Assembly: GCF_900095825.1 (NCBI RefSeq)
Contig: NZ_LT608315.1
Coordinates: forward strand, 2,169,628-2,233,627
Reading direction: 5' to 3'
Source of the DNA: Acidaminococcus massiliensis
GTDB lineage: Bacteria > Bacillota > Negativicutes > Acidaminococcales > Acidaminococcaceae
Length of the DNA: 64,000 nucleotides
Positions 40,555 through 59,375 of this stretch are shown piece after piece (positions within the stretch are counted from its first letter, which is position 1; every line of letters begins with the position of its first letter). The notes beneath the pieces are model-generated. The model was not told the DNA's origin, did no database searches, and was given only the letters and a program-made list of their open reading frames with translations. A program made the translations under genes and the position numbers.

Positions 40555-41433
40555 ATGGAAAAAATCAAGACCTTTGACGAACTCACTATCCGGGATAATT
40601 TTCTCTTCCAGCATGTCATGCGCAATGAACGGCTTTGCACCCATCTCATCGAAAAAATCTTGAATATCAAAGTCCGTTCCCTCCACTACCTGGATTTCGA
40701 AAAGACCATCGACCTCCGTCTGGACGGCAAAAGCATCCGTTTGGATGTCTATGTAGAAGACGAAGAAGGCCGGGTCTACGATATCGAGATGCAATGCTCC
40801 AACTCCCCCAGGAACGACTTAGCCAAACGCAGCCGTTTCTACCAAAGTATGATCGATGGAGAACTGCTGGACAATGGCAAACCGTATGAAGAACTGAATC
40901 CCTCTTATGTAATCTTCATTTGTACATTTGACTCTTTCCACAAAGGACTTCCCATATACACATTTACCCATTGCTGTAAAGAGGATTACAAGGTACAATT
41001 AAAAGACGAAGAGACCCGGATGTTTCTCAACAGCAAGGGCAGTGAAAATGCAACAGATCCTGATATCGCTGCTTTTCTCCGGTATGTGGACGGAAAAGCT
41101 GCTAAGGGGAATTTCGTAGAAAGATTGGATCAGGAAGTCCATTTTGTTAAAAGTATAGATAAAGTGAGGCGAGAGTATATGATTTTAAGCGATGAAATCA
41201 GGAGACGCCAAAGAGAAGCCGCAGAAGAAGGCATGAAAAAAGGATTAGAACAGGGATTAGAACAAGGATTGGAGCAAGGCCGCCTGGAAGGGAAACGGGA
41301 AGGCAGTGAAAACGAACGCCGCCAGTTGCTGATGAACCTTTTGGACAGCGGTATGCAGGCGGAACAAATCGCAGCCGGAACCAAAGTTCCAGTAGAATAC
41401 GTACGGAAACTGGCTGAAGAAATGAAAAATTAA
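40555..41433 (+). CDS. Rpn family PD-(D/E)XK nuclease / putative recombination-promoting transposase
   Basis: The 292-residue protein begins TFDELTIRDNFLFQHVM, typical of Rpn/transposase_31 proteins. The nuclease core is IRLDVYVEDEEGRVYDIEMQ (about 61-80), giving the D...E-x-Q motif. The C-terminus (about 205-260) is a charged helix with tetrapeptide repeats KGLEQ-GLEQ-GLEQ-G encoded by a 12-bp DNA repeat (41246-41278), then a short regulatory tail. Rpn proteins cut DNA and promote RecA-independent recombination. Neighbouring restriction-like genes suggest a defence or mobile context. Confidence 0.85.
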   Translation: MEKIKTFDELTIRDNFLFQHVMRNERLCTHLIEKILNIKVRSLHYLDFEKTIDLRLDGKSIRLDVYVEDEEGRVYDIEMQCSNSPRNDLAKRSRFYQSMIDGELLDNGKPYEELNPSYVIFICTFDSFHKGLPIYTFTHCCKEDYKVQLKDEETRMFLNSKGSENATDPDIAAFLRYVDGKAAKGNFVERLDQEVHFVKSIDKVRREYMILSDEIRRRQREAAEEGMKKGLEQGLEQGLEQGRLEGKREGSENERRQLLMNLLDSGMQAEQIAAGTKVPVEYVRKLAEEMKN

Positions 41434-41439
41434 TATTTC

Positions 41440-41489
41440 AAAAGGGGCTGCTGCACGTGTGATTTTCACACGTGCAGCAGCCCCTTCTT
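41440..41489. terminator. Bidirectional terminator between the Rpn gene and the McrC-like gene
   Basis: A 19-bp perfect stem (41444-41462 with 41466-41484) has a 3-nt loop, A4 before and TTCTTC after. It carries the CTGCTGCACGTG core of the recurrent hairpin family and separates convergent genes. Confidence 0.85.
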
Positions 41490-43294
41490 CACTCCCTCAG
41501 CTCCCGCAAAAGTTCCTGGAGATTCTTCTGCTGGTTCTCTTCGCTGACTTCTTCGGAAGAGGGAATCACATTGGCCGCCGGGCGGATCTGGTTCCCTTCC
41601 AGCCGGCAGTTGTAGAAAGATTCCAGTTCCTGGTCTCCGTTGGTGAGCCCGTAGAGGATCTCCAGCCCCCGGATGGAAACGTCCACTTCTTCCCCTTCTT
41701 CCTCATAGGGCATGGGGCTCAGGGAAAGGAGATATTTATAGGCCATCTCCGGCATCAGCTCTTGGAGGACTTTTTTCTTATAGCTGTATTTGGCATCCAG
41801 GATCAAGTAAGTCTCCCGCCCTCTTCCCCGCCATTTCAGCAAATAGTCCGGGGTGTAATAATGGCCTTCCTCCAGGGCCTTGAAGGCATAGGTGGTATTC
41901 CGGTAGAGGTGGATGCCCCTTTCGGCGTTTTCCGCCTGGTCCGTGATCACCGGCTGGAAATACAGGGTCAGGCTCTCTTCTCCCTTGTGGAAGTGGAACA
42001 CATTCTGGTAACCGGAAGGGTCGTACAGGTTCCGTGCCCCCTGGCTGTAGCGCTGCCGGCGGCGGCTGTCCAGGATGTAGCCGGCTCCCTGGAGCTGGCA
42101 AATCAGTTTGGCCAAGCAGTACACTTCGAATACGAAGGTGTTTTCATACAGGTTCAGCAGCATCTGCTCCCGGGGGAAGTGGTGGCAGGTATTCTGGATC
42201 CACTGGTGGATGCACAGGTAGATCCGGTGATACTGAGGAATCCGGAAAAAGGGTTCCGTGGGCACCGGCAACTGGAGGCCATCCAACAAGGTCACTGGAA
42301 GGATCTGCTGGTAGGAGACGAACATCTCCTGGAGCCGCTCTTCCACCTCTTCGCACCGTCCCAGGAAGCTCCGGAGCATCCGGGCCGCATTTTCATAGAG
42401 CACCTGGGAAGACAGGATATAGCCGTTTTCCAGGGCATCCGGCAGTTCCAGCCCTTGGAGCTGGTCCTGGATTTCCTTCCGTCCTTCCCCGATGTCGTAG
42501 AGCATCCGTTTGAGGAAGCTGAGGACCACCTGGTTCTCATAGACATCCCGGCTCATCTTATCCTGGGTCATCAGGAGCTTTTCGGGCAGGCAGTGCCGGT
42601 CCCCAACCTGGATCCCAGCAGGAGACTCCTTCAGATATTCCGGATGGCGGACCAGATACTGGAGGGTATGGGAATTCACCGTCTGGACTTTTTCCGTCCA
42701 GTCCACCACCTCGGCGGTTTCCAAGGTGTGGCGGCAGTTGGCCTTGAAATACCCATAGCTTTCTTCATAGACCTGGAGGATCTCATCGGCCAGGGTCAGT
42801 TGGGAAAGGAAATCCTGGAAATCGCTCCGTTCCCCCTGGACCAGGCCCCCGGTCTTTTCCCGGAGCAAGGGCTTCTGGTGGGCATAGATGAATTCCAGCA
42901 TGGCTTTCAGGTTCTGCTGCTGGGGAGAAGGCTGGATCAGCACCGGCAGAAGGTCGGTATACCAGGTGCTGTCAGTGCCGTCTTCCTGCTGGAGGGTGAT
43001 TTCCAGTTCCACCAGGCCCATATGGTAGGCAAAGATATTGTTGGGGAACAGGACGGTGCCGTGGCGCCGGTCGTACATACTGTTCAGCGGCTTTCCGTTC
43101 AGCGCCACCGCTACGGAAGCACAGTCCCAACCGGCAGGGAGCTCCAGGTCGTAGTGGAGGTTTTCCCGCACCCCCGGATGCCCCGCTGCCGCCAGGACCC
43201 GTTCTGCCGAATAGGGACGGGCCTGATCGGTCACCGGCAGCAGCAGTCCTGGCCCGTTCTGTTCCAGGAGACGGATGGTGTTTTCCATGGCCAT
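41489..43294 (-). CDS. McrC-like DUF2357 / PD-(D/E)XK nuclease of a McrBC-type system
   Basis: This 601-residue protein has an N-terminal beta-rich DUF2357 region (about 20-230), a helical middle (about 240-400) and a PD-(D/E)XK nuclease at the C-terminus: YYTPDYLLKWRGRGRETYLI (about 494-513) then LDAKYSYKKK (about 514-523), giving PD...DAK. In McrBC systems the McrC partner is the endonuclease activated by the McrB NTPase. The gene lies 1 bp after the AAA+ gene. The target (modified DNA or other nucleic acid) cannot be read from sequence. Confidence 0.8.
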   Translation of the reverse strand: MAMENTIRLLEQNGPGLLLPVTDQARPYSAERVLAAAGHPGVRENLHYDLELPAGWDCASVAVALNGKPLNSMYDRRHGTVLFPNNIFAYHMGLVELEITLQQEDGTDSTWYTDLLPVLIQPSPQQQNLKAMLEFIYAHQKPLLREKTGGLVQGERSDFQDFLSQLTLADEILQVYEESYGYFKANCRHTLETAEVVDWTEKVQTVNSHTLQYLVRHPEYLKESPAGIQVGDRHCLPEKLLMTQDKMSRDVYENQVVLSFLKRMLYDIGEGRKEIQDQLQGLELPDALENGYILSSQVLYENAARMLRSFLGRCEEVEERLQEMFVSYQQILPVTLLDGLQLPVPTEPFFRIPQYHRIYLCIHQWIQNTCHHFPREQMLLNLYENTFVFEVYCLAKLICQLQGAGYILDSRRRQRYSQGARNLYDPSGYQNVFHFHKGEESLTLYFQPVITDQAENAERGIHLYRNTTYAFKALEEGHYYTPDYLLKWRGRGRETYLILDAKYSYKKKVLQELMPEMAYKYLLSLSPMPYEEEGEEVDVSIRGLEILYGLTNGDQELESFYNCRLEGNQIRPAANVIPSSEEVSEENQQKNLQELLRELRE

Positions 43295-43295
43295 C

Positions 43296-46200
43296 TCAGT
43301 GGAAGAACTGGAAGAACTTCATCCGCCGGTTCCCCCACTCCAGGATCTGATCCAACAGCGCCGCGCTCTGGACCATCCGGTTGCTGGCACAGTCATCCCG
43401 GAACTGGATCAGCCATTTTTCGAATTCTGCCCCATTGCCGCTGAGTTTGGGCAGGACTTTCTGGGCCACGGCATAGTCCAGGGCGATGACCCCGGGGCGG
43501 ATGTGGTCTTCCGGTTCCATGAGACGGGAAGCCACCCGCCAGTACCGGTGCAGGGCCAGTTCAATCCGCATGCTCAGATAGATATTCTGTTCCGCCAGCC
43601 GGGCTTTCACCCGGTCATAGACATTCTGCTCCACGCTGGTCAGCTGGCAGCTTTCCCGGGGAGCCACATCGAAGAGGCTCTTCAGCTGCTGCCAGGAGAC
43701 CTGCTGGATTTCCCCATTGCCCAATCCCCCGTCTACTTCTGGGACGAACTCCGTATGGGGCAGGGTGACGATCCAGGCCCGGTCGATCAGCCGGGGAGAA
43801 AGTGTCTCCGTGGTGTGGTCGTTGTTGATGGTAGCTAGGAAATGGAGGGTCTCCGGCAGCTGGAACCGATGGTTGTGGCCCAGGTTGATGGTGTGCTCCT
43901 CATTCCAATCATCGCATACATTCATGAAATCTGCCCAGTAGTATTCCATGGGGGAAAGGTTGGCTTCATCCAGGAGGATGTAATAGGGATACTGCCGGAT
44001 TCCATGACGTTTTTCCCAATCCAGCAGCCGCAGCCCGTCATAGACATCCCGGTTGCTTTCTTCGAAGGCCTTGGTGAGGGGATTGTAATAGCCGATCAGA
44101 TCCCGTTTGGAAGTCCAGCCCCGCTCCACGGAAACAGGGATATACCGATTGGTGGTGCTCATGAAATCCTGGGGCCCGATTTTCCGTTCGAACTGGGTCA
44201 GTCCCAGCACCTTGCCCAGAAGGTTGCAGAAAGAAGTCTTGCCGCTGCCGGGAGAGCCGGAAAACACCGTCAAAAAGCCCTGGGTAGCGCAGATCAAGAG
44301 ATCCAGGATCAGGTTCCGGCTGTATTGGGGCCGTTCTTTCTGGATGGAAGTGATCAAGTATTCCAGGCATTTCCGATTGTTGCTGCTGGAAGCTGGGATC
44401 CCGTTGATCCGTTCTGCCAGCTCTTCTTCCGTCTGGGGCGGAGCCTGGCGGGTCTGTCTTTCCTGGACCAGGGCCAAGGCTTTCCGGTTCCGGGCGGATA
44501 CACCCTTGGCGTTTCCCAGTTCCTGCCAGATATCCGGATACCGTTCCAAGAGGGCGGAGATGAAATCCTGTCCCCACCGTTTGTTCACATTGTCCAGGAG
44601 ATGCTGGTACAGGAAGTCCCCCACCTCTTCATAGCCTTCCCGGGCCGCCTTATCCCCTTCCAAGATGGCTTCCAGCCGCTGGATCCGCTGCTGCCGGATG
44701 GCGGAGGGAAGATTGCTGAACAGCTGGTCCTGTTCCCGTTCCAGGAAGTTTTTCAAGGTTTCCGGCTTTACCATGTCGCCGGAATCCACCTGGGCGCTTT
44801 TCACCAGGCTCTGGAGCAGTACTTCATCCGGGGCCATATCCACCAGCTGGGAAGCCGTGCCCGGCAGACGATGGTAAAAGGTCCACTCTGTCTTTTCCTG
44901 CCGGCTGGCCCAGGTCCCTTCGGCCGGGGAGAAGACCACTTTCTGCCAGGTTTCCGGCGGGCAGGCAGTCAAGAGATACTGGTTGGCAGGCACTTCGCTT
45001 TCCACAAAGAAACCGAACCGGTTGTTCTTCTGGACTTCATAAGGGCCGGCGATCCAGCCATTTTCCAGCTGGATCAGGATCTGCTCTCCGGCAAAGAGAT
45101 CCTCTTCCTGGAGCCGCAGCACCGTATCTTTAGAAATGGGATCCAGGAGCCTTTTTTCCGGCACCACCGTATACAGTCCCTTTTCAAAGGGATACTGCAG
45201 GTGCCCTTCCTTCAGGGCATCGATGCAGAACACCCGATAAGCGGTGGACCGGAGGTTCCCCTGGTTGTCTTTGTTTTCCACCAGGGTTTCCGGGCTGATT
45301 TCCAGGAAGATGATGTCATTCTCATGGAAATGGTCTTCCATATATTTCTGGTCGCTGTGGAGGCTGTACCACAGGTTGATGTTCTTGTACTGTTCTGCCC
45401 GGGGGATCAGGGCATCGATTTCTTCTCCCGAAAGGGCCCGGTAGGCTTCATCCTGCCAGATCCCCATGGGCGTGAAATTGTAAAAGCTGTCCACGATGTT
45501 GATCCGGCCCACATAGGTGGTGAAGTTCTTTTCTTCCGAGGCTTCCTGTCCGTCGTCGGCGCTTTCCGGAGCGGAGGCGGGCCCTGCAGGCACCATTGCC
45601 GCTTCCGGGGCCTGGGCAGGATCCAAGGCAGCAGAAACGGCCTGAGGTTCCGAGGTGGCCGGTGCCATGGTCTCCGCCGGAACTTCTTCCGGGGCCGGTT
45701 CCAGGACGGCATTCTTCTTTGCCCGGCCGTTCCGGTTCCGGACAGCCTTATCCCGCATCCGGCTGTCCCGGTTCTTCCGGGCAGCAGGCTCTTCCGGGTT
45801 TTCTTCTGCAGAGACTTCTGGTTCCCGGTTCTCTTTGGCTTCCCGGTCTCCCTTGGTCCCTTTGCCGTTTTTGGTCTCTTTGGTCTCTTTGGTTTCCCTG
45901 GCTTCCCGGGCCTCTTTTTCTTTCTTCTTCAGCAGGGCTTCTGCCTGGTGCTGCTTCCCTTCCGGATATGGCATTTCGGCCATTTCCAGCACCATCCACA
46001 GGGCGTTGGGCCGAAAAGGCTCTTTTTTCTTCTGGCAGATCCGTCCATATTTCAGCAGCAGGTCCGCCATGGCATCCGGGCTGTATTTGCTGATTTTTTT
46101 CATGTTCTCCGGATCTTTCCCCACGATCTGCTGCAAGTTCCGGCACACCTGGCCCAGGAAGGCTTGGAAGGTATAGGCGGCAATATCCTGGTAGATCCGG

Positions 46201-46460
46201 TCCCCTTCCTGGTACAGCTCGACGGCAAAGGGAACGATTTTCTCCCTCACCCGGGGGGACCGTTTGTCCAGTTTTCCCAGTTGGATGATGTATTTCCGGT
46301 ATTTCCGGCTGTTCCCCTTCATGGGCTTCAGCAGTTCCTCCACTGGGGTGGTTTCAAACAGCATCTGCAGATAATGTTCCTGGACCTTGTCCGCAGTGCT
46401 GCTACTGAGATCGACGGGCAGGGCAGCCTCTTGTTTTTTTGGTAATTTCTGGGGTTTCAT
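43296..46460 (-). CDS. McrB-like AAA+ NTPase with large N-terminal sensor region
   Basis: The 1054-residue protein has a helical N-domain (1-180) and a long low-complexity linker rich in Lys, Glu, Ala and Pro (about 180-300). A possible beta-rich recognition domain spans about 305-540, followed by a helical stretch (about 545-700). The McrB-type AAA+ has Walker A FSGSPGSGKTSFCN (about 740-753), Walker B YYILLDEANLSPMEYYW (about 824-840) and ATINNDHTTE (about 877-886), the place of the McrB NTxxD signature. The start is taken at 46460 from GGAGG spacing. It pairs with the nuclease gene 1 bp downstream, and is probably antiviral. Confidence 0.8.
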   Translation of the reverse strand: MKPQKLPKKQEAALPVDLSSSTADKVQEHYLQMLFETTPVEELLKPMKGNSRKYRKYIIQLGKLDKRSPRVREKIVPFAVELYQEGDRIYQDIAAYTFQAFLGQVCRNLQQIVGKDPENMKKISKYSPDAMADLLLKYGRICQKKKEPFRPNALWMVLEMAEMPYPEGKQHQAEALLKKKEKEAREARETKETKETKNGKGTKGDREAKENREPEVSAEENPEEPAARKNRDSRMRDKAVRNRNGRAKKNAVLEPAPEEVPAETMAPATSEPQAVSAALDPAQAPEAAMVPAGPASAPESADDGQEASEEKNFTTYVGRINIVDSFYNFTPMGIWQDEAYRALSGEEIDALIPRAEQYKNINLWYSLHSDQKYMEDHFHENDIIFLEISPETLVENKDNQGNLRSTAYRVFCIDALKEGHLQYPFEKGLYTVVPEKRLLDPISKDTVLRLQEEDLFAGEQILIQLENGWIAGPYEVQKNNRFGFFVESEVPANQYLLTACPPETWQKVVFSPAEGTWASRQEKTEWTFYHRLPGTASQLVDMAPDEVLLQSLVKSAQVDSGDMVKPETLKNFLEREQDQLFSNLPSAIRQQRIQRLEAILEGDKAAREGYEEVGDFLYQHLLDNVNKRWGQDFISALLERYPDIWQELGNAKGVSARNRKALALVQERQTRQAPPQTEEELAERINGIPASSSNNRKCLEYLITSIQKERPQYSRNLILDLLICATQGFLTVFSGSPGSGKTSFCNLLGKVLGLTQFERKIGPQDFMSTTNRYIPVSVERGWTSKRDLIGYYNPLTKAFEESNRDVYDGLRLLDWEKRHGIRQYPYYILLDEANLSPMEYYWADFMNVCDDWNEEHTINLGHNHRFQLPETLHFLATINNDHTTETLSPRLIDRAWIVTLPHTEFVPEVDGGLGNGEIQQVSWQQLKSLFDVAPRESCQLTSVEQNVYDRVKARLAEQNIYLSMRIELALHRYWRVASRLMEPEDHIRPGVIALDYAVAQKVLPKLSGNGAEFEKWLIQFRDDCASNRMVQSAALLDQILEWGNRRMKFFQFFH

Positions 46461-46502: not shown

Positions 46503-46538
46503 AAAAAGAAAAGCCGACGCCTCTCCCAGCGCGGCTCT
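46503..46538 (-). terminator. Terminator of the GH18 gene
   Basis: On the minus strand GCCG-CGC pairs with GCG-CGGC around an 8-nt loop, followed by TTTTCTTTTT. A TATAAT (complement 46543-46548) just upstream could start the McrBC-like transcript. Confidence 0.6.
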
Positions 46539-46559
46539 TCCTATTATACCCAATTTGGG

Positions 46560-47648
46560 TCATTTTTTCCACTTTTCCATGGTGCTCCACACGTCCGGCT
46601 CTTCCAGACCCTTCCGCCAGTAGGCGCTGCCAGCTAAGTCGTACCGGCTGATCAGGGCATTCTTCAGAGCCAGGCTCCGAGACTCTTCCTGCCACACCCG
46701 ATGGAGCACCCCCTGTTCCCGGTATTCGAAATAATATTGGCCTTCTTCGCTGCGCCAAGCCGGCACCATCCCTTTTTCAGCGATCAGCTTCCGGGCACCT
46801 TCCATGGAAAGGGTCTTGGCGCTGACCTTTCCCTCTTCTTCCTTCCAGTCCCGCATGTAGAGGGGCATCCCCAGCACCAGTTTTTCTGCCGGGACTTCCT
46901 GTAACGTATTCCGGATGCCTTTTTCCACCCAGGGCAGGCTGGCTACGGAGCCGGCCCGGGGAGACAGCCGGGAATGCTCATCGTAGGCCATGAGCATCAC
47001 ATAGTCCACCTTCCCCGCCAGGGCCTTCCGGTCGTAGCAGCGGGACCAGTTGCTGTTGTCCGAGGGAACTGTCACATCGATGGAGACGGTATACCCTTCC
47101 TGCTGCAGGGGGCCGGCGATCTCTCCCACGAACTCCGTCAGCCGGTCGCTGTCTTCCGCCCGGATGTTTTCGAAATCCAGGTTGATCCCATCCAGCTGGT
47201 ACTGTTTCGCCAGGGACAGGATCCCCTCCACCGCATTCTTCCGGCCGGCTGGATTGTCCAAGAGGCCATGGGTCCGGTCCGGGTCGAAGCCGTTGGTGAT
47301 GAGCGCCCACACTTTATACCCCTGGGCATGGGCCTGGGGCGCATAGTCCAGGGACGCATGCTTCACCTGGATGTTCCCCTCTGTATCCCCGATCACGAAC
47401 CAGCTGGGAGAAAGGACATTGATCCCCGGCAGCTTCTTTTCCCGGGAAAGCCGGGAAGCGTTTTCTCCGGGAGCCTGCCAGTCCCACACCAGCCCCACCG
47501 GACCCTCCACCTTCTGGGGACGGTAGGGTTCCTGGACCGGAGGCTGCTTCTCCTTTCCCGGCCCAATGCTTCCAGGGGTCCGGGCACAGGCCGTGCCGGT
47601 GAGGGCCATCAGGCAAAGGCAGAAAACGGGTATCCATCGTTTGTTCAT
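46560..47648 (-). CDS. GH18-family glycosidase, SleL/YaaH-like, exported
   Basis: The 362-residue precursor has a signal sequence with Cys21 (LTGTAC), possibly a lipoprotein with a non-canonical lipobox. The catalytic GH18 motif is LDGINLDFENI (about 156-166), matching the DGxNxDFE form of YaaH/SleL enzymes that hydrolyse N-acetylglucosamine linkages in peptidoglycan. VDYVMLMAYDEHS (about 214-226) and LVLGMPLYMRDW (about 257-268) are further barrel strands. No LysM repeat is visible. It probably acts in the envelope on the wall, but other glycans remain possible. Confidence 0.85.
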   Translation of the reverse strand: MNKRWIPVFCLCLMALTGTACARTPGSIGPGKEKQPPVQEPYRPQKVEGPVGLVWDWQAPGENASRLSREKKLPGINVLSPSWFVIGDTEGNIQVKHASLDYAPQAHAQGYKVWALITNGFDPDRTHGLLDNPAGRKNAVEGILSLAKQYQLDGINLDFENIRAEDSDRLTEFVGEIAGPLQQEGYTVSIDVTVPSDNSNWSRCYDRKALAGKVDYVMLMAYDEHSRLSPRAGSVASLPWVEKGIRNTLQEVPAEKLVLGMPLYMRDWKEEEGKVSAKTLSMEGARKLIAEKGMVPAWRSEEGQYYFEYREQGVLHRVWQEESRSLALKNALISRYDLAGSAYWRKGLEEPDVWSTMEKWKK

Positions 47649-48734: not shown

Positions 48735-50273
48735 ATGAAAAATCAACTGTACAAATCACCGGAAGCGCTTTATCAGGGACTGAGCCGGCTGCGCCAGGAT
48801 GTGCTGGTGAAGGGGGAAGCTCTGTATCGATCCTGGCGTCCCCAGATCCAGCGGACCCATTTCCTGAACAGCGCCTTGAACATGGCTTTTTATCTGGCTC
48901 TGCGTTCCCACGACCTGCGGAAGATCCAGCATTCTCTCCTGCCCCTGGGCCTTTCTTCCCTGGGCCGGGGCGAAGCCCGGACCATCACCAACCTGGATGC
49001 GGTGATGGCTTCTCTGGGACGGATCTGCCAGGTGCCCGAAGCCCAGCAGATTCCCTATCCGGATCCCAAACGGTTCTTTTCCGGGGATACCCTGCTCTCC
49101 TACAATACAGGGCGTCTCTTCGGCCGGGAAAAAAGCGGTACCCGGATCATGGTGACCCTGCCCACCGATGCAGCCCTGGACGGCGGGAAGCTGATCCGGG
49201 AACTGGTGGCTGCCGGCATGGACAGTGCCCGGATCAACTGTGCCCACGATACCCAGGCCGAATGGGAAAAGATGATCGGATACATCCGTCAGGCAGAACA
49301 AAAGACCGGCCGCCGCTGCCGGGTCCATATGGATCTGGCAGGGCCCAAGGTGCGGATCGATCATCTCCTGCTGCTTTCCCTGGATGCCCGGGTATTTCCG
49401 GGCGATTCCCTGTTCCTGGTCCGGGACAGCATCGCCGCCTGGGACCCGGCCTACCAAGGAGGGATCGTGATTTCCTGCAGCATCCCGGAAATCTTCCAGC
49501 ACCTGAAAGCGGGAGACCCGGTGCTCATCGATGACGGGAAGATCCGGGCGGAAGTAGAAAAGATCGTCCCCCAGGGAGCTTGGCTAAAGATCCTTTACGC
49601 CCGTCCCGGGGGAAGCAAACTCAAGAACCAGAAAAGCCTGAACTTCCCCCAGACTCCGCTGGATATCTCCCCCCTCACCTCCAAAGACCTGGAGGACCTG
49701 GACTTTGTGGCAGCCCAGGCAGATTCCATCGGCTATTCCTTCGTGAAATCCGCAGAGGATATGGCCCGGCTCCAGCAGGAACTGCGCCGGAGATTGGGCC
49801 GGCAGTACCGGAAGAAGGCCATCATCGCCAAGATCGAGACCCGGGAAGCGGTCCACCACCTGCCGGACATCATCGTCCAAGCCGCCTCCCGGCAGCCCTT
49901 GGGCATCATGATCGCCCGGGGTGACTTGGCTGTGGAAGTGGGCTGGCAGCGCTTGGCAGAACTCCAGGAAGAGATCCTGTGGATCTGTGAAGCAGCCCAT
50001 GTGCCGGTGATCTGGGCCACCCAAGTGCTGGAGAACCTGGTGCGGACAGGCCTCCCCTCCCGAGCAGAGATTACCGATGCGGCCATGGGGGAACGGGCGG
50101 AATGCGTCATGCTGAACAAAGGTCCCTACATCGTGGAAGGGGTCTCCGTCCTGAACAACATCCTGAAACGGATGGAATCCCACCAGTATAAAAAATCTCC
50201 GGAACTCCGTGCCCTGAGCCTGGCCAAGGAAGAATTCCAGCGGCTCAAGACAGCGGCAGGAGGGAAGAAATAA
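48735..50273 (+). CDS. Pyruvate-kinase-like protein with N-terminal extension and no C-terminal domain
   Basis: The 512-residue protein has about 135 extra N-terminal residues of unknown fold (helical, basic). The pyruvate-kinase barrel then shows TRIMVTLPTDAALDGGKLI (about 136-154), SARINCAHDT (place of RxNFSHG), HMDLAGPKVRID (place of DxxGPxIR), IIAKIETREAV (about 368-378, catalytic Lys), IMIARGDLAVEVG (about 394-406) and PVIWATQVLENL (about 428-439). The allosteric C-terminal domain is absent. The Asn-Phe-Ser-His-Gly loop is changed to Asn-Cys-Ala-His-Asp, so classical activity is doubtful. Confidence 0.75.
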   Translation: MKNQLYKSPEALYQGLSRLRQDVLVKGEALYRSWRPQIQRTHFLNSALNMAFYLALRSHDLRKIQHSLLPLGLSSLGRGEARTITNLDAVMASLGRICQVPEAQQIPYPDPKRFFSGDTLLSYNTGRLFGREKSGTRIMVTLPTDAALDGGKLIRELVAAGMDSARINCAHDTQAEWEKMIGYIRQAEQKTGRRCRVHMDLAGPKVRIDHLLLLSLDARVFPGDSLFLVRDSIAAWDPAYQGGIVISCSIPEIFQHLKAGDPVLIDDGKIRAEVEKIVPQGAWLKILYARPGGSKLKNQKSLNFPQTPLDISPLTSKDLEDLDFVAAQADSIGYSFVKSAEDMARLQQELRRRLGRQYRKKAIIAKIETREAVHHLPDIIVQAASRQPLGIMIARGDLAVEVGWQRLAELQEEILWICEAAHVPVIWATQVLENLVRTGLPSRAEITDAAMGERAECVMLNKGPYIVEGVSVLNNILKRMESHQYKKSPELRALSLAKEEFQRLKTAAGGKK

Positions 50274-50363: not shown

Positions 50364-51209
50364 TTATGCTGCCAGCAAAGAAAGCCTGTATTGAACAGGA
50401 CTTTTCCAGCCCAGTTTTTCCTTGATCCTTTGTTCGTTATAGTATTTGATGTATCGTTCGATAGCGGCTTTTAGTTCTTCGTAGCTGTAGTAGATCACTC
50501 CATAATACATTTCCTGTTTCATTAAGCCGAAAAAGTTTTCCATTACAGCGTTATCATGACAGTTACCCTTTCGAGACATGCTCTGAAAAATTCGTTCTTT
50601 TTTTAGTTTCCTGGTATAGGCCTTCATTTGGTATGCCCAGCCCTGATCGGAGTGAAACGTTCTTCGATATGGACAATCAGCAGTAATTTCGATTGCTTCA
50701 GCTTGAGCTTCCAGTATGCTTTCAGCCGAAGGACGTTTGGCTATTCCATAGCTGATGATTTCATCATCGAACATGTCCAGGAAAGGATCCAGATAAAGCT
50801 TGTGCAGGGTCAGATGTCCCTGTGTATCTACTTCATAATATTTGAATTCTGAAGTATCGGTCGTAATCTTCTGATGTGGGATATTCGTCTCAAAACGACG
50901 ATGTATTCTATTCGGAGCAATGGTCCCTACCTTACCCTTATAGGAACTGTATTTACGGCTTTTCCGGGTAAAGGATGTTACCTGAAGGCTCAGTTTCTGC
51001 ATGATACGTTGAACTTTCTTCTTGTTCACGCAAATCCCTTGATTCTTCAGCTCACCGGTCATGCGCCGATATCCATAATCTTTATGCTGGCTGCGGATTT
51101 CCTGTATTTTGTCCTCTACTTCCTGGTCTGGATTCACGCGGTCAAACCGTTTCTGCCAGTACATATAGGTCGCTTTGGGCATTTGAGTATAGGAGAGAAG
51201 GTCTTTCAA
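50364..51209 (-). CDS. IS3 OrfB, DDE transposase (copy 2)
   Basis: The 281-residue product is identical to OrfB of copy 1, with the same TTG start overlapping the orfA stop and an open frame continuing upstream for an OrfAB fusion. The catalytic D, D and E (TTDTSEF, SDQGWAY, NAVMENFFG) are intact, so the copy is potentially active. Confidence 0.93.
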   Translation of the reverse strand: MKDLLSYTQMPKATYMYWQKRFDRVNPDQEVEDKIQEIRSQHKDYGYRRMTGELKNQGICVNKKKVQRIMQKLSLQVTSFTRKSRKYSSYKGKVGTIAPNRIHRRFETNIPHQKITTDTSEFKYYEVDTQGHLTLHKLYLDPFLDMFDDEIISYGIAKRPSAESILEAQAEAIEITADCPYRRTFHSDQGWAYQMKAYTRKLKKERIFQSMSRKGNCHDNAVMENFFGLMKQEMYYGVIYYSYEELKAAIERYIKYYNEQRIKEKLGWKSPVQYRLSLLAA

Positions 51210-51784
51210 TTTGAATGATCTTCGGAGACTGGAGATGATTTTCGCAACTCTCTCATTTTTGCTTCGTCCTCTAAACGCAGTCTCCTCAGTTCTTTTAAAA
51301 AAGCATTCTCTATACGGAGTTTAAGATTTTCATCCTCTAACTCCTTGACATGTTCCACACTGATGTCGACCATCGGCTGCTGAACCTGGGTATCTGTTTT
51401 TTTGGTTTGAGATTTGTTCAAAGTTCTCTTCCTGCCTTTTTTATGTGACCGTAAAGCATCTGGTCCCGCAATTCTAAATTCATTGACCCATCTGGCAATC
51501 ATTGATGGGTTGTTGATCCCTACTTGAATTGCTAGTTCCTGATATGAGATTTCATTTGTTAAGTAAGACTCTACCACAGAAAGTTTTTCTTTGAAAGAGT
51601 ATATTTTTTGAGAGCGGGATCTTTTCAGTCCATCATCACCAAATGCCTTGTAAGCAGCAACCCACTTTAGCAGCTGGCTGCTACTTGCCATCCCATATTT
51701 ACGTGAAATAGAAATACACCCTTCGTCACTGTTCAAATATTCCAGTACTATTTTTTTCTTAAATTCATAGCTGTGTTTTGCCAT
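51206..51784 (-). CDS. IS3 OrfA, helix-turn-helix protein (copy 2)
   Basis: The 192-residue product is identical to OrfA of copy 1: two HTH units and a C-terminal coiled coil. Its ATG follows directly after the T6 of the left-end terminator (minus strand), which hides the ribosome site. Confidence 0.92.
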   Translation of the reverse strand: MAKHSYEFKKKIVLEYLNSDEGCISISRKYGMASSSQLLKWVAAYKAFGDDGLKRSRSQKIYSFKEKLSVVESYLTNEISYQELAIQVGINNPSMIARWVNEFRIAGPDALRSHKKGRKRTLNKSQTKKTDTQVQQPMVDISVEHVKELEDENLKLRIENAFLKELRRLRLEDEAKMRELRKSSPVSEDHSN

Positions 51785-57872: not shown

Positions 57873-57958
57873 TCGTATAATAGAGTTGTACCAGATATTC
57901 TCTTTTATAGTGAATTACGGTACGATTAGAATGGAGCTGTGGATTGGTTGCGAACCCC
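57873..57958 (+). repeat. 86-bp direct repeat: left-end remnant of an IS110 element
   Basis: 57873-57958 repeats 57959-58044 with one mismatch (57945 T against 58031 C). It begins exactly at the element's left end and ends inside the target-guide loop, at the CT core of the guide. The most economical reading is a left-end stub of an older element into whose guide loop copy 2 inserted. Confidence 0.75.
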
Positions 57959-57967
57959 TCGTATAAT

Positions 57968-58205
57968 AGAGTTGTACCAGATATTCTCTTTTATAGTGAA
58001 TTACGGTACGATTAGAATGGAGCTGTGGATCGGTTGCGAACCCCTACCGCTTGACGGTTTTCGTAGAGTCCGACCACAGACTTCATTCAATTTGTTAATG
58101 AGTTGGATACCGCTCGACGGTTCATATCTAGCGAGGATACATTATGATGAAGTCTCTGTGGCTTTGATGCACAGCTGCCAATTCAAAAAAAGGAGGTTGA
58201 TTTTT
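57968..58205 (+). ncRNA. Candidate IS110 bridge RNA (copy 2)
   Basis: It is organised as in copy 1: target loop closed by CTGTGG (58023-58028) and CCACAG (58074-58079), left guide GTTGCGAACCCCT, right guide containing GTAG, and donor guides AGTTGG and CGAG further on. The left guide matches the genomic bases flanking copy 1 on its left (GCGAACCCCT, 392-401). Confidence 0.6.
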
Positions 58206-59375
58206 ATGCTTTGTATCGGAATTGACGTTGCAAAGCGGAAACATGACTGCTGTATCATTGACTCGGATGCATTGAAAACAGTTGAATCTTTTACATTTCC
58301 CAATTCACGGGAAGGCTTTGACATGCTCCTTTCCAAGATTTCTGAACTGGGCATTCCAAAAGATAAAATAAGAGTAGGATTGGAAGCAACCGGTCACTAT
58401 TCCTCGAATCTCGCCCATTTCATCTCAGAACATGACCTTCCACTGCTCACTTTCAATCCGCTTCTCACGAATAGATACAAGCAAGGATTCAGCCTGCGTA
58501 AAACCAAGACTGATAAAGTCGATGCCTGCGCTATTGCACAGATGATTGTGTCAGGGAAAGGATCCCAAACCTACTCTTCTTCATTGTACCATAACGAGGA
58601 AATGAAATCACTCTCTCGTTACAGATCTCAAACCATGCAGAAGTGTTCCAAGCTAAAGATATCAGTTTCCCGTCTGGTTACGATTTTATTCCCAGAGCTG
58701 GAAGGGCTGACATCTTCCATCCATCTTGCTTCAATCTATGCGCTTCTAAAAGCCTATCCTGGCCATGAACAGATTGCTCATTGCAGCATGAAGCGGCTGA
58801 CGCGCCTGTTAAGTGATGCCTCACAGGGGAGATTTGACAAAAGCAAGGCTTTGGAAATCCACCAGGCAGCATGCCGTTCTATCGGTAAAGTCTCGCTTTC
58901 GGCTTCTATGGAACTCGTCCATACCATTACGGATATTGAAGTGTTGAAGCAGCATATCGTTGAAATCGATGAGAAGCTTAAGGAAATGGTGGACCAGGAA
59001 GAATCTTCGATTATTGACATACCAGGGATCGGTTATACCCTTTGTGCCAGCATTCTGGGCGAAGTTGGTGATTTCAAGCGTTTTCCGGATGTCGACAAGC
59101 TCCTTGCTTACGCAGGGATGTCACCTTCCAAACATGACTCTGGAGACTACCATTCGAAGCATAACAAGATGGAAAAAAGAGGATCCCCCTATCTGCGAAA
59201 GACACTGTACCTTGCCGCCCGCCTGGTTGCACAGAACGTACCGAAATTCAAAGAATACCTTGAAAAGAAACTGTCAGAACACAAGCCTTACAAAATCGCT
59301 TTGTCCCATGTAGCCAAGAAACTGATCCGATTGATTTACCGGCTTGGTATTAGTGGCTGCCCTTATTTAGCCTGA
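58206..59375 (+). CDS. IS110-family transposase (copy 2)
   Basis: The 389-residue product is almost identical to that of copy 1 (Ile4 for Val4), with the RuvC-like N-terminus GIDVAKRKHDCCIID and the C-terminal AYAGMSPSKHDSGDYHSK region intact. Ribosome site AAAGGAGG precedes the ATG. In-frame codons upstream run through the leader RNA and are not used. It is potentially active. Confidence 0.93.
   Translation: MLCIGIDVAKRKHDCCIIDSDALKTVESFTFPNSREGFDMLLSKISELGIPKDKIRVGLEATGHYSSNLAHFISEHDLPLLTFNPLLTNRYKQGFSLRKTKTDKVDACAIAQMIVSGKGSQTYSSSLYHNEEMKSLSRYRSQTMQKCSKLKISVSRLVTILFPELEGLTSSIHLASIYALLKAYPGHEQIAHCSMKRLTRLLSDASQGRFDKSKALEIHQAACRSIGKVSLSASMELVHTITDIEVLKQHIVEIDEKLKEMVDQEESSIIDIPGIGYTLCASILGEVGDFKRFPDVDKLLAYAGMSPSKHDSGDYHSKHNKMEKRGSPYLRKTLYLAARLVAQNVPKFKEYLEKKLSEHKPYKIALSHVAKKLIRLIYRLGISGCPYLA

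What the first reader, a model, noticed from the sequence alone, without database searches (positions are those of the whole stretch)
40555..46460. Putative defence module: McrB-like NTPase, DUF2357 nuclease and a convergent Rpn nuclease
The 1054-residue AAA+ protein has a very large N-terminal part with a Lys/Glu/Pro-rich linker, unlike classical McrB, and its partner has an intact PD-(D/E)XK site. McrBC-like systems with unusual sensor domains are diverse, and several recognise features other than methylated DNA. The adjacent Rpn nuclease shares only a terminator with it and may be a separate mobile gene.
Basis: partly seen in the sequence, partly recalled or inferred. Interest (0 to 1): 0.65.

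Follow-up and report, generated by a model that had tools for sequence, protein, structure and literature searches.

The report
Mobile McrBC-like NTPase–nuclease pair
A gut bacterium (Acidaminococcus) carries a two-gene machine, an NTP-driven motor plus a nuclease, that looks like a mobile, shortened variant of the McrBC restriction systems with an exchangeable front domain on a floppy tether; its neighbour, an Rpn nuclease, is a separate gene.

Summary
Confirmed: a two-gene operon (NTPase 43296-46460, DUF2357 nuclease 41489-43294) and a convergent Rpn gene (40555-41433) that shares only a hairpin with it. Sequence and predicted structure make the pair a McrBC homologue. The nuclease's best solved-structure matches are the non-McrB chains of McrBC entries. 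The NTPase core matches McrB, level with other AAA+ proteins, and carries the short NxD form of the McrB signature. The PD-(D/E)xK residues are invariant in 39 of 39 partners. The pair is patchy (4 of 9 Acidaminococcus genomes), sits at different chromosomal sites, and recurs as an adjacent pair in several phyla, on plasmids and on viral-labelled contigs. Rpn does not travel with it. The large N-terminal part is an add-on (2 to 783 residues in relatives, of several unrelated kinds). The Acidaminococcus proteins lack about 100 residues of a helical, often coiled-coil-like segment present in all 37 other aligned relatives. Best reading: a shortened NxD McrBC-type restriction module, probably anti-phage or anti-plasmid; target unknown, nothing tested at the bench. 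Rpn is probably a separate RpnL/RpnS-type gene. New variant of a known kind.

The parts
43296..46460 (-). McrB-like NTPase (A), 1054 aa: helical N-domain, disordered linker, beta-domain, short helical segment, NxD-type AAA+ core
45870..46460 (-). A residues 1-197: helical N-terminal domain (helices from residue 22); 73-78% identical in G006/G007, 40% in G004; distant homologue in L004 (Lachnospiraceae)
45525..45869 (-). A residues 198-312: disordered Lys/Glu/Pro-rich linker
   Evidence: (pLDDT 31-38)
44838..45524 (-). A residues 313-541: conserved beta-domain; first half has an OB-like order of predicted strands and helix (my reading of the DSSP line); no sequence-level match to a known family
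44379..44837 (-). A residues 542-694: helical segment; the region 542-709 is 168 aa here against 240-310 in the 37 non-Acidaminococcus rows; no heptad signal by a home-made score
43299..44378 (-). A residues 695-1054: AAA+ core; VIA Z 14.6 to E. coli McrB 6ut6_D (tied with MoxR-like 2r44, Z 14.7)
44232..44258 (-). Walker A, GSPGSGKTS (residues 735-743)
43818..43826 (-). NxD signature, N879-N880-D881
41489..43294 (-). McrC-like partner (B), 601 aa, DUF2357 plus PD-(D/E)xK nuclease
42932..43294 (-). B residues 1-121: Ig-like beta-sandwich, RhoGDI-like by fold (weak, Z about 6)
42143..42931 (-). B residues 122-384: DUF2357 helical part with a long helix hairpin (H252-282, H301-331)
41645..42142 (-). 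B residues 385-550: PD-(D/E)xK nuclease; E390, P482-D483, D500-x-K502 invariant
46543..46571 (-). sigma-70-like promoter (TGGAAA-17-TATAAT) upstream of A; a terminator-like site (46506-46527) lies between it and the start of A
   Evidence: consensus matches only; 7 promoter-like sites found, 3.1 expected
41442..41486 (.). hairpin, probably a shared terminator, between the convergent nuclease and Rpn genes (21-nt perfect arms); one of 5 genome sites with this arm motif, so not part of the module
40555..41433 (+). Rpn-family nuclease gene; separate from the pair
41179..41433 (+). candidate internal RpnS antitoxin (in-frame ATG with GAGG 9 nt upstream) holding GLEQ four-residue repeats (12-bp tandem repeat 41240-41279)
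   Evidence: compared with PMC10327210 passages

Best explanation
The two minus-strand genes form a mobile McrBC-type restriction module of the NxD branch. Shown here by sequence and prediction: an AAA+ NTPase with the shortened McrB signature, an adjacent McrC-type protein with a DUF2357 helical stalk and an intact PD-(D/E)xK site, near-constant pairing, purifying selection, and presence at different genomic sites. Inferred by homology: the NTPase forms a hexamer, the nuclease's stalk inserts in it and stimulates NTP (probably GTP) hydrolysis, and binding of a target by the N-terminal helical domain and/or the beta-domain triggers translocation and nucleic-acid cutting. The likely target is foreign (phage or plasmid) nucleic acid; its nature (modified DNA, or RNA as predicted for CoCoNuTs) is unknown. 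Within this branch the Acidaminococcus version has a helical segment about 100 residues shorter than its relatives and no coiled-coil signal there. The convergent Rpn gene is a separate element, probably an RpnL/RpnS toxin-antitoxin-type defence gene.
For: B: Foldseek's only hits at E <= 0.001 are 6hz4_M (4.6e-7) and 6ut6_G (1.9e-4), chains of McrBC entries other than the McrB chains; the VIA top five rows are all such chains, Z 9.6-10.5. A: VIA 6ut6_D Z 14.6 and 6hz4_A Z 14.0 are among the top three, tied with MoxR-like 2r44 Z 14.7. Of the 60 (of 237) rows shown in a PDB profile search, only the three E. coli McrB rows have a best stretch that runs from the P-loop to the NxD motif (6hz4_A E 0.002). 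N-x-D in 43 of 45 rows, Q-x-D in 2. Nuclease residues invariant in 39 of 39. B-like sequence at 41 of 42 genome-contig loci, the exception being a contig that ends 130 bp after A; A-stop to B-start gap -65 to +42 nt in the 39 of 42 where both frames were picked; B-like sequence at 5 of 5 viral-labelled loci; a partner-sized gene directly downstream in 4 of 4 plasmid regions opened, annotated DUF2357 in 2 and hypothetical in 2 (profile match tested for one). Patchy in the genus, 4 of 9; the conserved block ends at the B stop and about 90 bp upstream of A; G000 has the G007 left flank 254 kb away from its own pair and only one NTPase match. dN/dS 0.05-0.20 in the core, 0.19-0.32 in B (some dS near saturation). 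RhoGDI-like N-domain on B, as PMC11090510 states for Type I-B/I-C CnuC (section read). 41 of 41 NTPases match the PADLOC candidate model PDC-M26A.
Against: No experiment shows defence by this family. Window context is housekeeping genes and IS elements. Among 129 neighbouring ORFs of relatives each PADLOC family shown had a single member, and no control was run. In Ruminococcus the pair is followed by a stress-gene cluster. The nucleotide is unknown; Foldseek's own ranking for the NTPase lists Lon, MCM, RavA, BrxL and dynein and no McrB in its 50 rows, and VIA ties McrB with MoxR-like and dynein domains. The beta-domain has no match to CSD or YTH by sequence. B itself has no PADLOC or NCBIfam hit at 0.1. 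Against 285 plasmid records that match the NTPase core, only 14 match B at the same cut-off, so many of the 285 may be other AAA+ systems.
Confidence: 0.78

Rival explanations
1. The pair is a stress-response or nucleic-acid quality-control machine rather than an anti-phage system, as suggested for Pseudo-Type I-B CoCoNuTs; defence would be secondary or absent.
For: In Ruminococcus locus L018 the pair is preceded by a trypsin-PDZ (HtrA-like, my label) protease and followed by rhomboid, YceG, TelA and TerD x3; ten further loci show a similar run of ORF sizes (only L018 was annotated). PMC11090510 proposes a stress role for Pseudo-Type I-B (section read).
Against: Patchy in Acidaminococcus (4 of 9) and at different sites; relatives on plasmids and on viral-labelled contigs; TerY-P, another tellurite-linked module, is tied to CoCoNuTs and defence in PMC11090510 (passages).
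Confidence: 0.2
2. It is a Type I-C or Pseudo-Type I-B CoCoNuT and nothing more unusual.
For: NxD motif, RhoGDI-like domain on the partner, two-gene layout, intact PD-(D/E)xK, heptad-rich segment in about half of the relatives, in line with the description of Type I in PMC11090510.
Against: The window protein lacks the coiled-coil-like segment, CSD and YTH could not be shown, and no reference CoCoNuT sequence was available here for a tree.
Confidence: 0.35
3. NTPase, nuclease and Rpn form one three-gene defence module.
For: Adjacent in the window; Rpn genes are reported to cluster with defence genes (PMC10327210, passages).
Against: Convergent, with a hairpin between; no Rpn-like sequence (E <= 1e-3) at the pair loci scanned, nor (E <= 1e-10) in the 19-kb regions around the pair in G004, G006, G007; 7 of 9 genus genomes have Rpn matches, elsewhere than beside the pair in the three other carriers.
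Confidence: 0.03

Closest known systems
E. coli K-12 McrBC (Type IV restriction)
   Same: AAA+ McrB-like NTPase upstream of a DUF2357/PD-(D/E)xK partner; best structural matches for the partner and among the best VIA matches for the NTPase.
   Different: NxD instead of NxxD signature; no DUF3578 (ADAM) by Pfam; Ig-like domain on the partner, which PMC11090510 says E. coli McrC lacks; long N-terminal add-on and beta-domain on the NTPase.
CoCoNuT Type I-B / I-C and Pseudo-Type I-B (Bell et al. 2024, PMC11090510)
   Same: NxD signature, RhoGDI-like domain on the McrC homologue, intact nuclease, two-gene core; about half of the relatives of this family show heptad stretches before the AAA+ core.
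   Different: The Acidaminococcus version lacks about 100 aa of the helical segment and its heptads; CSD-like and YTH-like domains not shown; residue after NxD is mostly H or Q, where E or D is usual.
PADLOC candidate PDC-M26
   Same: All 41 NTPases of alignment A1 match model PDC-M26A, best E 5.6e-32.
   Different: For the window the match covers 262-440 of 724 model positions; partner not matched; none of the 15 papers listed (of 1,561) held the term PDC-M26.
AAA+ / DUF2357 bipartite restriction enzyme with methyltransferase of Pca (PMC8989522)
   Same: AAA+ GTPase-domain subunit plus DUF2357 subunit (one passage seen).
   Different: That system has a methyltransferase; none was recognised among the window neighbours tested.
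Rpn toxin / intragenic antitoxin (Zhong et al. 2023, PMC10327210)
   Same: Neighbour gene 40555-41433: Rpn family, four-residue repeats, in-frame internal start.
   Different: Not part of the pair.

Membership tests
McrBC family (McrB-like NTPase plus McrC) | AAA+ core with Walker A and B like McrB | tested here: met
   fold alone is shared with MoxR-like and dynein AAA domains
McrBC family (McrB-like NTPase plus McrC) | N(x)xD signature | tested here: met
   NxD form in 43 of 45 rows, QxD in 2; NxD and NxxD defined in PMC11090510
McrBC family (McrB-like NTPase plus McrC) | adjacent DUF2357 partner with PD-(D/E)xK | tested here: met
McrBC family (McrB-like NTPase plus McrC) | GTP-dependent hydrolysis stimulated by the partner; translocation and cleavage | not testable with these tools
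   needs biochemistry
Classical E. coli-type McrBC | N-terminal DUF3578/ADAM domain on McrB | tested here: not met
   no Pfam match of residues 1-197, 305-545 or 540-700 at E 0.1; sequence level only
Classical E. coli-type McrBC | NxxD signature | tested here: not met
   NxD
CoCoNuT Type I | NxD signature | tested here: met
CoCoNuT Type I | coiled coil fused to the NTPase (I-A, I-C) or encoded separately (I-B) | tested here: not met
   window segment 168 aa, heptad score 0.00 by a home-made test that skips windows with proline or more than one glycine; the gene upstream of A is GH18. 18 of 37 non-Acidaminococcus rows beat all 40 shuffles, 19 do not
CoCoNuT Type I | CSD-like OB fold and, in I-B/I-C, YTH-like domain in the NTPase | tested here: inconclusive
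   OB-like order of predicted strands, but no sequence match; domain not folded alone
CoCoNuT Type I | Ig-like, RhoGDI-like N-terminal domain on the McrC homologue | tested here: met
   2ji0 Z 6.4, rmsd 4.0, 106 aligned, plus many other RhoGDI rows; Z under 8, so weak; PMC11090510 says such a domain also occurs outside CoCoNuTs
CoCoNuT Type I | place in the published GTPase tree | not tested
   no reference sequences at hand
Rpn toxin-antitoxin (gene 40555-41433 only) | Rpn nuclease family and variable four-residue repeats shortly after an internal start | tested here: met
   the repeats begin about 20 residues after the candidate start, the upper end of the published 8-20
Rpn toxin-antitoxin (gene 40555-41433 only) | toxicity blocked by separately translated RpnS | not testable with these tools
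   needs expression assay

The most novel reading that the evidence does not exclude
In this branch of NxD McrBC systems the N-terminal domain is an exchangeable recognition module and the coiled coil is dispensable: at least three unrelated N-terminal domain families sit on the same beta-domain/AAA+ chassis, the Acidaminococcus proteins have dropped about 100 residues of the coiled-coil-like segment while keeping an N-domain on a ~115-residue disordered tether, and between sister proteins the motor stays nearly constant while the N-domain differs (G004: AAA+ 91% but N-domain 40% identical to the window). It would be a natural coil-free CoCoNuT relative with modular target recognition.
Probability: 0.4. 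Interest if true: 0.55.

Novelty: new variant of a known kind. Interest (0 to 1): 0.42.

Why it matters
PMC11090510 states that no NxD-motif McrB GTPase had been characterised. A compact two-gene example without the coiled coil, with an intact nuclease and with natural variants that differ mainly in the N-terminal domain, is a convenient test case for what these systems recognise (modified DNA or RNA) and for the role of the coiled coil. The Ruminococcus arrangement next to TelA/TerD/YceG genes adds a possible link between McrBC-type motors and ter stress genes that deserves a survey.

Tried and rejected
Rejected: Rpn as part of the module. Rejected: the large N-terminus as the defining feature. 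Rejected: classical McrBC with DUF3578. The N-domain has a distant homologue in L004 (Lachnospiraceae P6A3; HMM E 2.9e-12), whose middle segment is long (275 aa), so the N-domain came first. Considered, not settled: CoCoNuT Type I membership.

Led nowhere: whole-length profile of A against PDB sequences gave P-loop and coiled-coil matches; profile of B gave an uncharacterised protein and keratins; beta-domain against PDB, Pfam and a cold-shock protein of the same genome gave nothing convincing. Foldseek for A listed no McrB in 50 rows. PADLOC and Pfam scans of 129 of 155 listed neighbours (from 28 of 42 loci) gave no recurrent defence family among the rows shown and had no control; ten single proteins rechecked gave one Cas10 (L009). 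No clean empty site could be shown for the window's own location, as its flanks lie apart in G006/G007. Phage records: one partial NTPase match, none for B. tRNA scan of the window: none. Literature: McrB with TerD and tellurite, 0 papers; Acidaminococcus with McrB, 3 papers seen in the listing only; CoCoNuT with McrBC and phage, 4 papers, of which only PMC11090510 was opened; PMC11514479, passages only, names no PDC-M system.

Dropped before counts: from A1 (41 rows) L001 (the window itself), L002 (apparently the same record as G006/L046), L008, L011, L017, L043 (broken frames), L047-L049 (weak or partial); from A2 (39 rows) L001, L005, L013, L020, L043 and the truncated copies L044-L046; from A4 (40 rows) also L038; from A5 (35 rows) L018, L020, L023, L025, L031, L032, L035, L045, L046 were left out of the A1 set and three plasmid proteins added. 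The 45 rows hold the A. fermentans protein twice (L002, L046). The heptad score is home-made, not a published coiled-coil predictor.

Full report
Observation. The finding holds at its coordinates. On the minus strand a 1054-aa NTPase gene (43296-46460) is followed 1 bp later by a 601-aa gene (41489-43294); convergent to them lies a 292-aa Rpn gene (40555-41433). Rpn matches TIGR01784 (E 9.6e-36), the partner matches DUF2357 (E 7.5e-6), and the NTPase matches no Pfam family at 1e-3. A hairpin with perfect 21-nt arms lies between the convergent genes; its arm motif occurs at 5 sites in the genome, 0 for the reversed control pattern, so it is probably a generic terminator. A promoter-like site with TATAAT precedes the NTPase, but a terminator-like site lies between it and the start codon, and both are mere consensus matches.

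Organism and distribution. The NTPase is present at full length in 4 of 9 genus genomes (G000, G004, G006, G007) and, weakly, in 1 more of the 61 genomes searched. In genome contigs 42 loci were found. A B-like sequence is present at 41 of 42; the exception is a contig that ends 130 bp after A. In the 39 of 42 where both frames were picked, the gap from A stop to B start is -65 to +42 nt. Labels of the loci are Bacillota, Pseudomonadota (Sutterellaceae), Deferribacterota (Mucispirillum) and one Bacteroidota MAG; many are MAG contigs and labels may be wrong.

The partner. The predicted structure (mean pLDDT 85.4) has a beta-sandwich (1-121), a helical DUF2357 part with a long helix hairpin, and a PD-(D/E)xK domain. 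Foldseek's only hits at E <= 0.001 are 6hz4_M and 6ut6_G. VIA lists five McrBC entries first (Z 9.6-10.5), then PD-(D/E)xK nucleases. The matched chains are not the McrB chains (E. coli ones named), so I take them as McrC. The N-terminal domain is matched by many RhoGDI structures (2ji0 Z 6.4, rmsd 4.0, 106 aligned), a middling score. E390, P482, D483, D500 and K502 are invariant in 39 of 39.

The NTPase. The model (mean pLDDT 77.7) shows a helical domain (22-197), a disordered linker (pLDDT 31-38), a beta-domain (313-541), helices (545-690) and an AAA+ core. Foldseek ranks Lon, MCM, RavA, BrxL and dynein for this model, with no McrB in the 50 rows shown. VIA puts MoxR-like 2r44 (Z 14.7; the MoxR label is mine) and E. 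coli McrB (6ut6_D 14.6, 6hz4_A 14.0) first, with dynein close behind. Fold alone therefore does not single out McrB. In a profile search of PDB sequences, midasin, Lon and others score better than McrB but on the P-loop (midasin with further weak pieces); of the 60 rows shown of 237, only the three McrB rows have a best stretch over positions 35-183, from P-loop to signature motif (6hz4_A E 0.002). The signature reads N-x-D in 43 of 45 rows and Q-x-D in 2 Erysipelotrichaceae rows. PMC11090510 (sections 7 and 8 read, other passages) defines the NxD branch by a deletion in NxxD, states that none had been characterised, and reports RhoGDI-resembling domains on the McrC partners of Type I-B and I-C CoCoNuTs and Ig-like domains on other NxD partners.

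What is unusual. The N-terminal extension varies from 2 to 783 residues among 41 aligned proteins. Of the 30 with at least 40 residues, BLAST groups 5 (4 Acidaminococcus and L004), 14 (Ruminococcus-type) and 2 (Parasutterella), and 9 stand alone. The segment between beta-domain and AAA+ core is 168 residues in all 4 Acidaminococcus proteins and 240-310 in the other 37. A home-made heptad score is 0.00-0.14 in the 4 and 0.34-0.88 in the other 37, of which 18 beat all 40 shuffles and 19 do not; weak SMC-type PDB matches and a few LmuB and MukB-like PADLOC matches point the same way. In a tree of the core the Acidaminococcus proteins (100/100) nest next to L003 Pseudobutyrivibrio (99/94) and L004 and L005 Lachnospiraceae (100/97), which have the longer segment, so the shortening looks derived and the gene probably came from a Lachnospiraceae-like source (inference). 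The N-domain was there before the shortening, as L004 has a homologue. The AAA+ core of G004 is 91% identical to the window but its N-domain only 40%, whereas G006/G007 are 87% in the core and 78% and 73% in the N-domain: exchange or fast divergence. dN/dS is 0.05-0.20 in the core, 0.13-0.20 in the beta-domain, 0.26-0.51 in the helical segment, 0.33-0.65 in the N-domain and 0.19-0.32 in B; no stop inside; several dS values are near saturation.

Mobility and context. The block shared with G007 and G006 runs from the B stop codon to about 90 bp upstream of A. In G006 and G007 the pair lies in a shared site; the flanks are mostly 92-93% identical, with one 1.4-kb stretch at 73%. G000 has the left flank of that site at C4:2465060-2467072 (92%), 254 kb from its pair, and only one NTPase match. 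In the window and G004 the pair follows a GH18 gene. Four plasmid regions of Citrobacter, Acinetobacter and Klebsiella have an NTPase relative with a partner-sized gene directly downstream, annotated DUF2357 in 2; one is near a restriction-methylation gene set. In all, 285 plasmid records match the NTPase core and 14 match B, so many of the 285 may be other AAA+ systems. L009 is close to a Cas10 gene. In L018 (Ruminococcus) the pair is followed by rhomboid, YceG, TelA and three TerD genes. The window's neighbours are pyrimidine biosynthesis genes (by Pfam for the dihydroorotate dehydrogenase pair; carAB, pyrB, pyrC and glutamate synthase by my reading of the translations) and IS elements.

Rpn. 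Seven of 9 genus genomes have Rpn matches; G000 has 8, some partial or broken; none lies in the 19-kb regions around the pair in G004, G006 or G007. The gene has 3.3 copies of a 12-bp repeat giving GLEQ units, other copies have different units and numbers, and an in-frame ATG with GAGG upstream lies about 20 residues before the repeats. This fits the RpnL/RpnS scheme of PMC10327210 (abstract and passages seen).

Verdict. A McrBC-type two-gene module of the NxD branch, mobile, with a derived, shortened architecture; anti-phage or anti-plasmid function is likely but untested. PADLOC already lists the NTPase family as candidate PDC-M26A (41 of 41 match). I do not file it as a CoCoNuT, because the coiled coil was tested and not met in this protein, though it may work like one.

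Noticed in passing
L018:1946-14311 (and loci L016, L017, L019, L021, L023-L025, L030-L032 by ORF sizes): In Ruminococcus-type loci the NTPase-nuclease pair sits between a trypsin-PDZ protease gene and a rhomboid-YceG-TelA-TerD x3 stress cluster.
   Followed up: partly
window 40555-41433 (41240-41279): Rpn gene with GLEQ four-residue repeats and a candidate internal RpnS start at 41179; repeat unit and number differ among the genus copies.
   Followed up: partly
L033 and L034, signature motif: Two Erysipelotrichaceae relatives have Q instead of N in the NxD motif, which should impair NTP hydrolysis by the known role of the Asn.
   Followed up: no
window 41442-41486 and G000:C4:623938, 792313, 1486960, 1784897: A near-identical GGGCTGCTGCAC hairpin recurs 5 times in the genome.
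   Followed up: partly
window 50364-51784 and 57939-59375: A transposase gene pair with an rve integrase core (IS3-like by my label) and an IS110-family transposase near the module.
   Followed up: no
window 48738-50273: 511-aa protein with a pyruvate-kinase barrel match (150-460) and a long non-matching N-terminal part.
   Followed up: no
L012, L014, L036, partner gene: These McrC-like partners carry a C-terminal extension of 100 or more residues ending in a shared, probably helical domain.
   Followed up: no
L078, Acinetobacter plasmid pA52-1: A 110,713-bp plasmid whose NTPase has a long heptad-rich segment; an IMG/VR contig of the same length carries the pair too, so it may be a phage-plasmid.
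   Followed up: no
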